NCBI GenBank assembly: GCA_016931085.1
Contig: JAFGFO010000471.1
Location: 1-19,497, forward strand
DNA: 19,497 nt
Reading direction: 5' to 3'
Origin: Thermoflexales bacterium
GTDB lineage: Bacteria > Chloroflexota > Anaerolineae > Fen-1058
Each line of letters begins with the position of its first letter. The stretch's first letter is position 1. Below, piece after piece: positions 9,304 through 13,295 of the stretch. The notes under the pieces are model-generated. The model saw nothing but the letters and a program-made list of their open reading frames with translations. It had not been told where the DNA came from and ran no database searches. A program made the translations under genes and the position numbers.

Positions 9304-9340
9304 AATTTGCCCGACCGAAGGTCGACATTCGCTATTCGCT
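9304..9340. repeat. Heptamer array with palindromic core at the phosphatidyltransferase 3' end
   Basis: On the plus strand: AATTTGC, the core CGACCGAAGGTCG (9312-9324), then ATTCGCT twice (9327-9340). It is homologous to 3010-3053 with the same order of parts. On the minus strand the junction of the two AGCGAAT units forms TAG (9332-9334), which is the stop codon of the phosphatidyltransferase gene. Confidence 0.78.
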
Positions 9341-9955
9341 CTTCGTCACTCGCCAGACGTGCCAGATGCGCTGGGCGGCTGTCACGTTGGTCAGGATCGC
9401 CATCAGTGCCAGCATGGGCCGCACCCAGCCGACGATCAGGGCGGCAGCGATGATGAGGACGCGCTCAAAGCGCGTGAGCAGCCCGCCTTTGCACTCCAAG
9501 CCCAGGCCCTCGGCCCGCGCGCGCGTGTAGCTGACCATCACCGACCCTACCAACGCGGCGAGGATCAGTATGACTTCCAGGCGTGCCCCGGCGTCCAGGT
9601 AAAACCAGGCCAGCCCCACGAAAACGAGCGCGTCACTGTAGCGGTCGAGCGTCGAATCCAGAAAGGCGCCAAAACGGCTTTGCTGCCCGGTCAGGCGGGC
9701 CAGCGAGCCATCCAGGGCATCCAGGACCCCGGCTAGCAGGATCAGGCCGCCTCCCCAAGCCAGGTAGCCGTTGGCCAGCACGGCGGCCACGCCGGCGTTC
9801 AACAGCAGCCCGGCCACGGTGATCGCGTTGGGTGTCACGCCCAGGATGGCCAATGGCTTGACCAGCGTCGACAGCAGCCCGCTGCTCCATCTTCTGGCCC
9901 AATCGGACAAAGCCGCCGGCCGGGGCGACTGGGGTTCTACTTGTTGTATATCCAC
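9332..9955 (-). CDS. CDP-alcohol phosphatidyltransferase, probable phosphatidylinositol-phosphate synthase
   Basis: A 207-residue membrane enzyme. The complete CDP-alcohol signature is present: D79, D82-G83, A86-R87, G96, D100 and D104 (the D-x2-D-G-x2-A-R-x8-G-x3-D-x3-D pattern), placing the divalent-metal site in the membrane. A later SYTRARAEGLG and RFER stretch is typical of the inositol-phosphate and glycerol-phosphate branch. Acting on CDP-diacylglycerol (or a CDP-diol lipid), it would add inositol-1-phosphate. The substrate is inferred from its operon with an inositol-phosphate synthase and PimA- and PatA-like enzymes; a PgsA role cannot be excluded from sequence alone. The start is a GTG at 9953-9955, six bases after GAGGAG. 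The stop lies inside a repeat. Confidence 0.82.
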   Translation of the reverse strand: MDIQQVEPQSPRPAALSDWARRWSSGLLSTLVKPLAILGVTPNAITVAGLLLNAGVAAVLANGYLAWGGGLILLAGVLDALDGSLARLTGQQSRFGAFLDSTLDRYSDALVFVGLAWFYLDAGARLEVILILAALVGSVMVSYTRARAEGLGLECKGGLLTRFERVLIIAAALIVGWVRPMLALMAILTNVTAAQRIWHVWRVTKSE

Positions 9956-9975
9956 ACCTTGCTCCTCGTTGACGT

Positions 9976-9984
9976 ATTATATCA
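9976..9984 (-). promoter_or_regulatory. Possible internal promoter before the phosphatidyltransferase
   Basis: Minus-strand TGATATAAT is a perfect extended -10, but no -35 is recognisable and the implied leader would be only about 14 bases with the ribosome site close to the transcript start. It could give this last gene of the inositol-lipid operon extra expression. Confidence 0.33.
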
Positions 9985-10029
9985 TCCCGTGCAGTCCCCG
10001 ACCGAAGGGAGGGGGAGCTTGTCAGGGGA

Positions 10030-11241: not shown

Positions 11242-11252
11242 TCATAGCTTCC

Positions 11253-11302
11253 AGACCCTAAAGGTCTTGGGCTATAAGAATAGCCTTGGACCTTTAGGGT
11301 CT
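11253..11302. repeat. Long hairpin across the acyltransferase stop codon
   Basis: Perfect 14-bp arms AGACCCTAAAGGTC (11253-11266) and GACCTTTAGGGTCT (11289-11302), with inner GGCTA and TAGCC arms extending the stem. The last codons and the TAG stop (11272-11274) of the acyltransferase lie in it. No T-tract follows, so it looks like an inserted palindromic element or an mRNA-processing structure rather than a terminator. Confidence 0.7.
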
Positions 11303-12180
11303 ATATCCCAAATGGGTGTGGTGAGCACCCACTGGTCGGGATGGGCACTCACGGCCCGCGCCAGCGCCTGCACGCCAATCTCGAGCGCCTGGGCATAGAC
11401 TTGCTCGCGGCTGGCGTCGGCCGGCGGCACGTAAGGCGGATCGATCTCCATGTGCATCTGCCCGTCCGGCAGCCGCCGCGCAAAGCCGACCACGAACGGT
11501 GCGCGCGTGCGCGCTACCAGCTTGGCGTAACCGTCAGGCATGTGGGCGTTCGCCCCCAAGAAGGGCACGTCCACGCCGCTGCCGGTCGTGTCACGATCCA
11601 GTGCCACTGCCACCACCTCGCCGCGCCGCAGGCCCCGGTATATCTCTAACAACGCGCCATCGGCTGGGATGAAACGCAAATAAGGCCGGCTGCGCAGCTT
11701 GACCATATACTGGTAGAGCTGCTCTGGCTGCAGGTGCTCGGCCACGGCCAGCACGGGCGTCCCCCACGCGGCCGGTATCGCGTGCATCATCCACTCGGGA
11801 TGGCCATAGTGCGCCGAGGCGGCCACGACCCCACGCCCCAACGCCAGGGCGGCGTGAAAATGCTCCCACTTCACACGATCGAGCTGGGCGTTCAGTTGCC
11901 CCGCTTCCTCCGCGGCCAGGCGGAACAGGTCATAGTAGTTCTTGCCCAGGTTGCGGAACACCTGGCGGACCACACCCTCGACGAGTGTATCGTTGGCGTC
12001 CGGGCCCAACGCGTGCCGGGCGTTCTGGCGGACTGCTCTGGCCGCAGCCTGGCTCAGCCGGTAGTACAGCTCGCCGCCCCATTCCGCCAGGCGGTAACCC
12101 AGGCCTGGCGGCAGGCGCGGGCACAGCGCGGCCGCCAGGCGGAATGGCGCGACCCTCAGATAGTCGCCGACAGCCCTCAT
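11272..12180 (-). CDS. LpxL/PatA-like lipid acyltransferase
   Basis: A 302-residue membrane-associated acyltransferase of the LpxL/HtrB superfamily. The catalytic H-x4-E is H124 and E129 in SAHYGHPEW. The second block, LDRDTTGSGVDVPFLG (194-209) followed by MPDGYAKL, matches the DRD-x5-GV-x-V-x-F pattern of actinobacterial PatA. It would transfer a fatty acyl group from acyl-CoA or acyl carrier protein to a sugar; position next to PimA points to the mannose of phosphatidylinositol mannoside. I chose the ATG at 12180 because it overlaps the ino1 stop as ATGA. A longer open frame (to 12390) is only the ino1 gene read out of frame. Lipid A is an unlikely product, since no Lpx genes are here. The C-terminus is encoded by a palindrome. 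Confidence 0.85.
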   Translation of the reverse strand: MRAVGDYLRVAPFRLAAALCPRLPPGLGYRLAEWGGELYYRLSQAAARAVRQNARHALGPDANDTLVEGVVRQVFRNLGKNYYDLFRLAAEEAGQLNAQLDRVKWEHFHAALALGRGVVAASAHYGHPEWMMHAIPAAWGTPVLAVAEHLQPEQLYQYMVKLRSRPYLRFIPADGALLEIYRGLRRGEVVAVALDRDTTGSGVDVPFLGANAHMPDGYAKLVARTRAPFVVGFARRLPDGQMHMEIDPPYVPPADASREQVYAQALEIGVQALARAVSAHPDQWVLTTPIWDIDPKGPRLFL

Positions 12181-13295
12181 GCCATTTCTGAATGGTATCC
12201 CGACTCGGCTGCCCCCGCGATAAACTCTTCGGTCTTGAGGTGGGCCACGTCGTCGGTGAACTGCTGTGGCGGACTTTTCATAAAGTAAGACGAAGGTGCG
12301 ATCAGCGCGCCCTTCATGCCGCGCTCCAGGGCCAGCTTGGCGCAGCGCACGGCGTCGATCACCACCCCGGCGCTGTTGGGGCTGTCCCATACTTCAAGCT
12401 TGAGCTCCAGGTTCAGCGGCACGTCGCCAAAAGTCGTGCCTTCCATGCGGATGTGGCACCACTTGCGATCTTTCAGCCACGGCACGTAGTCGCTGGGGCC
12501 CACGTGGATGTCGTCCTTCTCCAGCGCGTAGGGGATCTGGCTGGTGACGGCCGAGGTCTTGGAAATCTTTTTGCTTTCCAGCCGCTCGCGCTCGAGCATG
12601 TTCAAAAAATCGGTGTTGCCGCCAAAGTTGAGCTGGTACATGCGGTCGATCTGCACGCCGCGGTCGACGAACAAGCGCGTCAGCACGCGGTGGGTGATCG
12701 TCGCGCCCACCTGGCTCTTGATGTCATCGCCGATGACGGGCAAGCCGTGCTCCTCGAAGCGGCCCTGCCAGTAGGCCTCGCGGGCGATAAAAACCGGGAT
12801 GCAGTTGACGAACGCGCAGCCGGCCTCCAGGATCTGTTCCACGTACCACTTGGTGGCCATCTCGCTGCCCACCGGCAGGTAACTGATCACCACGTCGGTG
12901 CGGGTGTCGCGCAGGATTTTGACGATGTCGGCCGTCGGGCCGGGCGCCTTGGTGATGATCTGCGACAGGTACTTGCCCAGTCCATCGTGCGTCATGCCGC
13001 GATAGACGGGCACGTTCATGCGCGGCACCTCGGCAAAGACGTAGGTGTTGTTGGGTGGGGCGTAGATCGCCTCGGCCAGGTCCTTGCCCACCTTGTTGAC
13101 GTCGACGTCAAAGGCGGCGGTGAACTCGACGTCGCTGATGTGATAGCCGCCCAGCCGGACGTGCATCAGGCCTGGTACAAAGTCGTCGTCCTTGGCGTTG
13201 CGGTAGTAATACACGCCCTGCACCAGGGAGCTGGCGCAGTTGCCGACGCCGATGATCGCCACCCGCACTTTTTTGCTGCTCGATTTTTTAGCCAC
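12177..13295 (-). CDS. ino1: myo-inositol-1-phosphate synthase
   Basis: A 372-residue enzyme converting glucose-6-phosphate to 1L-myo-inositol-1-phosphate with catalytic NAD. The length fits the short actinobacterial/archaeal form rather than the roughly 530-residue eukaryotic one. NAD loop: GVGNCASSLVQG (16-27). Further family blocks are YLPVGSEMATKWYVEQ (139-154), GDDIKSQVGAT (189-199), NFGGNTDFLNM (223-233) and the Lys-rich ESKKISKT (240-247). The GTG start at 13293-13295 is fixed by a perfect AGGAGG at 13302-13307, six bases away. First gene of the operon, it overlaps the acyltransferase by four bases, so inositol supply is co-expressed with its use in lipid. Confidence 0.95.
   Translation of the reverse strand: MAKKSSSKKVRVAIIGVGNCASSLVQGVYYYRNAKDDDFVPGLMHVRLGGYHISDVEFTAAFDVDVNKVGKDLAEAIYAPPNNTYVFAEVPRMNVPVYRGMTHDGLGKYLSQIITKAPGPTADIVKILRDTRTDVVISYLPVGSEMATKWYVEQILEAGCAFVNCIPVFIAREAYWQGRFEEHGLPVIGDDIKSQVGATITHRVLTRLFVDRGVQIDRMYQLNFGGNTDFLNMLERERLESKKISKTSAVTSQIPYALEKDDIHVGPSDYVPWLKDRKWCHIRMEGTTFGDVPLNLELKLEVWDSPNSAGVVIDAVRCAKLALERGMKGALIAPSSYFMKSPPQQFTDDVAHLKTEEFIAGAAESGYHSEMA

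What the first reader, a model, noticed from the sequence alone, without database searches (positions are those of the whole stretch)
9332..13295. Compact operon for an acylated phosphatidylinositol mannoside outside Actinobacteria
Four consecutive minus-strand genes encode Ino1, a PatA-like acyltransferase, a PimA-like mannosyltransferase and a CDP-alcohol phosphatidyltransferase. Key residues are visible in each (Ino1 NAD loop, H124/E129 and DRD in PatA, E287/E295 and the VPGGV loop in PimA, the full DG-AR-G-D-D signature). Mycobacteria keep pgsA, patA and pimA adjacent, but ino1 is elsewhere; here the inositol source is included and is translationally coupled (ATGA) to the acyltransferase. 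The predicted product is an acyl-PI-monomannoside. I recall acylmannosyl-phosphoinositol lipids being reported from Thermomicrobia, which would fit a Chloroflexota host; this is memory, not checked.
Basis: partly seen in the sequence, partly recalled or inferred. Interest (0 to 1): 0.85.

Follow-up and report, generated by a model that had tools for sequence, protein, structure and literature searches.

The report
Chloroflexota operon for acylated inositol-mannose lipids
A bacterium of the phylum Chloroflexota carries, side by side, genes that look able to make a fatty-acid-decorated inositol-mannose membrane lipid known from mycobacteria and their kin, and many relatives in its phylum have the same gene set, often with a second acyltransferase and a phosphatase-like gene that might fill known gaps in that pathway.

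Summary
Minus-strand genes 9332-13295 encode Ino1, a PatA-like acyltransferase, a PimA-like mannosyltransferase and a PIP-synthase-type enzyme; ino1 and patA overlap by ATGA. The contig is Chloroflexota: nearest named relatives are Thermoflexus and an Ardenticatenia MAG that shares two downstream genes.

It is not special to this contig. A PatA profile matches 212 of 301 sampled Chloroflexota genomes. Of 100 regions read (one per genome), 80 hold pimA, 71 ino1, 72 PIPS, 54 all four. Mostly there are two tandem patA genes (75 of 100, a few counted with a fragment); first copies form one clade apart from the second copies. The window keeps a single, second-type copy. In 43 of 100 a PHP-family phosphoesterase is present, a candidate for the PIP phosphatase that is unidentified in mycobacteria.

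Limits: the proteins score under the NCBIfam cut-offs; the window PatA keeps the mannose-contact residues but not the inositol-contact histidine of mycobacterial PatA, so the acylated position is uncertain. No lipid was measured. Best reading: an acyl-PI-mannoside operon, a new variant of a known kind.

The parts
12177..13295 (-). ino1: inositol-3-phosphate synthase (actinobacterial-type Ino1)
   Evidence: PF01658; TIGR03450 536 bits (cut-off 638); Mtb Ino1 1gr0 E 2.6e-147; AGGAGG upstream of the GTG
11272..12180 (-). patA (second-copy, b type): PatA-like acyltransferase; start overlaps the ino1 stop (ATGA)
11252..11303 (-). strong hairpin (15 + 6 bp) across the patA stop codon, between patA and pimA
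   Evidence: -38.7 kcal/mol, z -5.5, 0 of 200 shuffles as good
10048..11241 (-). pimA: PimA-like phosphatidylinositol mannosyltransferase (GT4)
   Evidence: M. smegmatis PimA E 2.1e-67; with actinobacterial PimA on a 100* branch against four GT4 paralogues
9332..9955 (-). PIPS: phosphatidylinositol-phosphate synthase-type CDP-alcohol phosphotransferase
   Evidence: PF01066; NF040950 165/180 bits, NF045883 132/170, pgsA 31/109; R94/R155/R195 equivalents R105/R165/R196 present

Best explanation
The four genes are an operon that builds an acylated phosphatidylinositol mannoside in a Chloroflexota bacterium. Ino1 turns glucose-6-phosphate into inositol-3-phosphate; PIPS joins it to CDP-diacylglycerol to give PI-phosphate; a phosphatase not in this window removes the phosphate; PimA adds mannose from GDP-mannose to the inositol; the PatA-type acyltransferase adds a fatty acid to the head group, most likely on the mannose. 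The set belongs to a cluster, commonly ino1-patA(a)-patA(b)-(PHP)-pimA-PIPS, that is widespread in the phylum; the window keeps one patA. Shown here: gene content, order, homology, key residues, fold of PatA, spread in the phylum. Inferred: substrates, order of steps, acyl position, the lipid itself.
For: Homology and residues of all four proteins. The arginines called absolutely conserved in PIP synthases (R153/R191 of RsPIPS; PMC4634129 passages) are present here and in 59 and 58 of 59 cluster PIPS. PimA branch. PatA model nearest M. smegmatis PatA; H126, E149, R164 equivalents kept, E200 as Asp. Of 100 regions: PimA 80, Ino1 71, PIPS 72, all four 54. Lipid A rival: LpxC in 1 of 301 genomes. 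PI is a major polar lipid of the Chloroflexota Dictyobacter (PMC12453558 passages).
Against: No NCBIfam cut-off is reached. The window PatA has V285, T288, L78 where actinobacterial PatA have His, Gln, Tyr (M. smegmatis H284, Q287, Y80); the H284A variant was severely compromised there. No PIP phosphatase and no PimB' identified in the window. No whole genome is held. In Thermoflexus PIPS is not in the cluster: elsewhere in two of three genomes, not found in the third. 9 of 100 regions have a PatA-type gene and none of the other three.
Confidence: 0.8

Rival explanations
1. The acyltransferase does not acylate mannose O6 but another hydroxyl (inositol, or another mannose position), or a different mannolipid, so the product is not the AcPIM1 of mycobacteria.
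For: Inositol-wall residues differ from mycobacterial PatA. First and second copies separate in the trees: first copies have Tyr in 51 and Phe in 9 of 60 at Y80 and Arg in 50 of 60 at Q287; second copies are variable at both. 26-28% identity to M. smegmatis PatA.
Against: E149 and R164, which contact the mannose in the docked model, are kept in all 25 rows of A1 and in 60 and 61 of 61 second copies; three LpxL-type rows have Arg or Lys at the E149 column.
Confidence: 0.35
2. The PF03279 protein is an ordinary lipid A (LpxL/LpxM) acyltransferase and its neighbours are coincidental.
Against: LpxC in 1 of 301 Chloroflexota genomes; sequence best to PatA; pimA in 80 of 100 regions around the PatA gene.
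Confidence: 0.03
3. The CDP-alcohol enzyme is a PG-phosphate or archaetidyl-type synthase and the pathway stops short of PI.
For: The nearest NCBIfam model is archaetidylinositol phosphate synthase (165 bits) before PIPSynth (132); one source names many relatives CDP-diacylglycerol--glycerol-3-phosphate transferases.
Against: pgsA model only 31 of 109 bits; R94, R155, R195 equivalents present; ino1 in the same operon; AIP synthase uses the same inositol phosphate acceptor (recalled). No tree of this protein was built.
Confidence: 0.05
4. The cluster was gained recently from Actinobacteria by horizontal transfer.
For: Functional match to the actinobacterial pathway.
Against: Actinobacterial PatA and PimA sit on long branches of their own (100*, 99*) outside the window's group; the cluster is widespread in the phylum. 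Only three PatA and two PimA rows of Actinobacteria were available, so the deep branching order is not settled.
Confidence: 0.04

Closest known systems
Actinobacterial PIM cluster (PIPS - patA - pimA), read here in Tsukamurella tyrosinosolvens NZ_LR134463
   Same: PIPS, PatA-type acyltransferase and PimA encoded together; same predicted chemistry
   Different: Order PIPS-PatA-PimA with HIT and NUDIX neighbours and no ino1 in the stretch there; here ino1-patA-pimA-PIPS; other Chloroflexota mostly have two patA and often a PHP gene
Mycobacterium smegmatis PatA (5f2t, 5oce)
   Different: Inositol-side H284, Q287, Y80 replaced by V285, T288, L78; relay Glu is Asp
Mycobacterium smegmatis PimA (2gej)
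   Same: Homology over residues 2-376 of 397, E 2.1e-67; joint branch with actinobacterial PimA
   Different: 37% identity to the Nonomuraea PimA
PIP synthases RsPIPS / MtPgsA1
   Same: CDP-alcohol signature and inositol-phosphate arginines
   Different: K135 is Arg here (R145), as in 54 of 59 Chloroflexota rows

Membership tests
PIP synthase | D1xxD2G1xxAR...G2xxxD3xxxD4 signature | tested here: met
   D79, D82, G83, A86, R87, G96, D100, D104
PIP synthase | Two arginines binding the inositol phosphate (R153/R191 of RsPIPS) and R94 of MtPgsA1 | tested here: met
   R165, R196, R105 (paper passages)
PIP synthase | NCBIfam NF045883 cut-off 170 bits | tested here: not met
   132.6 bits
PimA | Groups with actinobacterial PimA apart from other GT4 enzymes | tested here: met
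   100* branch; only two actinobacterial rows and four paralogues of Chloroflexota as outgroup, and the program warns of long branches meeting
PimA | Mannosyl transfer from GDP-mannose to inositol O2 of PI | not testable with these tools
   needs an assay
PatA (PIM mannose acyltransferase) | Catalytic His with carboxylate relay (H126, E200) | tested here: met
   H124, D195 (Asp for Glu)
PatA (PIM mannose acyltransferase) | Mannose-contact E149 and R164 | tested here: met
   E148, R163, invariant in the 25 rows of A1
PatA (PIM mannose acyltransferase) | Inositol-side contacts H284, Q287, Y80 | tested here: not met
   V285, T288, L78; the three actinobacterial rows have His, Gln, Tyr in these columns
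PatA (PIM mannose acyltransferase) | NCBIfam NF005919 cut-off 209 bits | tested here: not met
   129.4 bits
Ino1 (actinobacterial type) | TIGR03450 cut-off 638 bits | tested here: not met
   536.3 bits over model positions 1-355 of 355; 1gr0 E 2.6e-147
Lipid A acyltransferase LpxL/LpxM | Lipid A pathway in the host | tested here: inconclusive
   Host genome not held; LpxC in 1 of 301 phylum genomes

The most novel reading that the evidence does not exclude
Chloroflexota ancestrally make diacylated PI-mannosides with a self-contained operon in which two PatA paralogues acylate two different hydroxyls of the same head group (one of them the inositol position whose acyltransferase is unidentified in mycobacteria), and the PHP-family hydrolase encoded before pimA is the PIP phosphatase, also unidentified in mycobacteria; the window's lineage has dropped the second acylation.
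Probability: 0.3. Interest if true: 0.82.

Novelty: new variant of a known kind. Interest (0 to 1): 0.6.

Why it matters
Acylated PIMs are textbook actinobacterial lipids (recalled). A cluster for them across much of Chloroflexota means the pathway is older or more widely shared than that. The cluster also offers candidates for two open questions: passages read say that the PIP phosphatase (PMC6506517, 2019) and the inositol acyltransferase of PIMs (PMC9490103, 2022; PMC12041525, 2025) are unidentified in mycobacteria. Here a PHP phosphoesterase and a second PatA paralogue sit in the cluster and can be tested in vitro. Against the second link: PMC9490103 speculates that the mycobacterial inositol acyltransferase is periplasmic and distinct from PatA.

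Tried and rejected
Literature: ten searches. No held paper has both 'phosphatidylinositol mannoside' and 'Chloroflexi' or the four terms. One search (Thermomicrobi + phosphatidylinositol mannoside) gave one biofuel review and one review of archaeal lipids; both were seen as listings only. One search listed 20 of 73 papers, none with a title on such lipids; one search gave none. The T. roseum and Sphaerobacter genome papers hold no 'phosphatidylinositol' and no word beginning with inositol or mannos. So 'not in print' is limited to open-access text and these terms.

Rejected: lipid A acyltransferase, PG-phosphate synthase, generic GT4, actinobacterial contig. A first PimA tree lost its outgroup rows and was redone. 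Promoter-like sites: 3 found, 1.2 expected, all on the plus strand; terminator-like sites: 3 found, 3.8 expected. The arm of the hairpin occurs only as its own two arms in the window and exactly in none of the 140 loci then held, so a mobile palindrome cannot be told from a regulatory hairpin. Co-occurrence of Ino1 and PatA was not used as evidence: Ino1 is near universal (265 of 301).

Biases: regions were read for 100 of the 212 PatA-positive genomes, 80 from the upper part of the ranked list (not every one) and 20 from lower in the printed list; lower hits were not printed. Many regions stop at contig ends, so absences are over-counted. The two-patA count of 75 includes fragments: in the first 80 regions 63 with fragments, 61 with both copies over 230 aa. 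ORF starts were taken mechanically, so the overlaps are inflated. PatA rows of 230 aa or less were dropped and L048_a; one search used 81 of 163 rows, 34 of 68 cluster PimAs. The first 162-row tree used no mixture model and needs 7 changes for the first-copy label against all other groups. G092 is called Ardenticatenia because its PIPS is identical to P0210 and the contig lengths agree.

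Full report
OBSERVATION. The ino1 stop and patA start share ATGA. AGGAGG precedes ino1 and GAGGAG precedes PIPS; patA has no such motif in the 22 bases before its start, as expected for coupling. The patA-pimA gap is 30 bases, the pimA-PIPS gap 92.

IDENTITY OF THE FOUR PROTEINS. 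Pfam gives CDP-OH_P_transf, GT4 domains, Lip_A_acyltrans and Inos-1-P_synth. Against solved structures the best hits are Ino1 of M. tuberculosis (E 2.6e-147), PimA of M. smegmatis (E 2.1e-67, next enzyme 2.4e-26), PatA of M. smegmatis (E 3.3e-18, LpxM at 1.7e-10), and AF2299/PIP synthase entries (E 4.1e-25 to 2.3e-18 for the first six of seven). Curated cut-offs are not reached: Ino1 536/638, PatA 129/209, PIPS 132/170 (AIPS model 165/180), pgsA 31/109; PimA's best model is an uncharacterised one at 145/260. So these are diverged members, named by family and resemblance, not as equivalogs.

HOST. No genome is held for the window. Four of the close relatives appear to have PatA and PIPS on one contig, as the longest-contig lengths agree (3955, 11612, 18215 and 4643; inference). 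Thermoflexus loci have ino1-patA-pimA in the same order, with Ino1 78%, PatA 42-44%, PimA 64-65% identity, but PIPS is elsewhere or not found. L049 (G092), whose PIPS is identical to P0210 labelled Ardenticatenia bacterium, has ino1-patA-pimA-PIPS followed by homologues of the window's ABC ATPase (52%) and ABC2/SpoIIM protein (43%). Hence Chloroflexota, near these two groups.

SPREAD IN THE PHYLUM. With a PatA profile 212 of 301 sampled Chloroflexota genomes match at E up to 0.001; with Ino1, 265 of 301 at E up to 1e-40. I read regions around the PatA place in 100 of the 212. Of the 100: PimA 80, Ino1 71, PIPS 72, two or more patA 75 (fragments included), PHP 43, all four of the window's genes 54, none of the other three 9. 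In the first 84 loci (80 plus four) the commonest orders are ino1-patA-patA-PHP-pimA-PIPS (17), ino1-patA-patA-pimA-PIPS (16) and patA-patA-pimA-PIPS (9); the window's own order ino1-patA-pimA-PIPS occurs in 3 and in 3 of the 20 further regions. Gaps are mostly short or negative, with starts taken mechanically; seven ino1-patA joints are 4-base overlaps like the window's.

TWO PATA PARALOGUES. In tandem pairs the first copy (a, next to ino1) and the second (b, next to pimA) fall apart in the tree: 1 change of the a/b label among 60 labelled rows in an 81-row tree with the mixture model, 2 changes among 122 in a 162-row tree without it. In one search the a rows plus one single form a 96* branch of 31; the b rows are not one clade (nine sit with the a rows and Actinobacteria on a 95* branch, two stand apart). 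The window sits with b rows and with the Thermoflexus-type singles (99* for seven rows). Thermoflexus genomes G001-G003 have a single PatA match, as do G212 and G280, so the single copy fits that lineage. Both types keep the catalytic His, the relay Asp and R163, but differ near the inositol wall: a has Tyr or Phe at L78 in 60 of 60 and Arg at T288 in 50 of 60, b is variable at both; b has Tyr or Trp at Y82 in 60 of 61, a mostly aliphatic residues. This suggests different acceptor hydroxyls. Which type matches mycobacterial PatA is open: a shares Y80; b more often shares the DRD aspartate (39 of 61) and, in 16 of 61, a histidine at H284.

PHP GENE. In 33 of 84 loci a PHP-family gene follows patA and, in the 32 that also hold pimA, stands next to it; one pair is inverted and one follows a single patA of the a branch. 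It matches PHP_C (35.9 bits, over its cut-off), PHP (21.8, under) and CehA/McbA metallohydrolase (75 of 80 needed). D11, H15, D20, H46, E73, H80, H114, D177 and H179 are kept in 33 of 33, D45 in 32; H13, the first of the HxH motif, in 29, with Gln in 4. In mycobacteria the phosphatase that turns PIP into PI is called unidentified (PMC6506517 passage). The PHP gene is a candidate by position alone; nothing here tests it. I found no such gene in the window; IMPase-family genes exist in 7 of 7 related genomes but also in 14 of 14 control genomes, which says little.

ACTINOBACTERIAL COMPARISON. In Tsukamurella the order is thrS-HIT-PIPS-patA-pimA-NUDIX without ino1 in the 11.7 kb read; Nonomuraea also has PIPS, PatA and PimA ORFs together. 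Actinobacterial PatA and PimA form their own long-branched groups, which speaks against a recent transfer, but only three and two such rows were available. That ino1 lies elsewhere in mycobacteria is recalled, not tested.

FUNCTION. Best reading: an operon for an acylated PI-mannoside, with the phosphatase step supplied elsewhere. Shown: genes, order, homology, residues, spread. Inferred: chemistry and product.

KNOWN OR NEW. Each enzyme class is known; PI in Chloroflexota is known (Dictyobacter, passages); PIP synthases across Bacteria have been reported (Morii 2014, title seen in a reference list); and one Thermoflexus protein already carries the name phosphatidylinositol mannoside acyltransferase. 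I found no held paper on PIM genes in Chloroflexota. The widespread cluster, the patA duplication and the embedded PHP gene are the new elements, within the reach of those searches.

Noticed in passing
window 11252-11303: A 15 + 6 bp hairpin straddles the patA stop codon and adds a short tail (DPKGPRLFL) absent from the 82%-identical relative P0003; the arm occurs exactly in none of 140 loci.
   Followed up: partly
33 of 84 loci, for example L054 8503-9279: PHP-family phosphoesterase gene between patA and pimA, with a largely conserved metal site; candidate PIP phosphatase.
   Followed up: partly
19 loci, for example L075 4704-5066: A small ArsR-type helix-turn-helix gene on the same strand directly upstream of the cluster (19 loci by blastp grouping); homologues in 40 of 84 loci at E 1e-8, position not checked for the rest, 34 of these also hold ino1. 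Possible regulator.
   Followed up: partly
window 737-5262: Both helicase-like ORFs contain stretches (SPLPSGEGTGVRDD, ALTPALSRRSQSERGERV) that look like small repeat insertions inside coding sequence.
   Followed up: no
window 6586-9181; L049 193-3099: ABC ATPase and a membrane protein with ABC2 and SpoIIM parts downstream of PIPS are kept in the Ardenticatenia relative; a lipid export role would be a guess.
   Followed up: partly
G185 C28:3673-4476: The only LpxC hit among 301 Chloroflexota genomes; perhaps a foreign contig in that assembly.
   Followed up: no
L058, L059, L063, L074, L089, L091: Regions with a PatA-type gene but none of the other markers; some genomes may use the acyltransferase in another setting.
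   Followed up: no
P0074: A PatA relative labelled Rudaea sp. (a proteobacterial genus, recalled) lies among the Chloroflexota-like hits; perhaps a mis-binned MAG.
   Followed up: no
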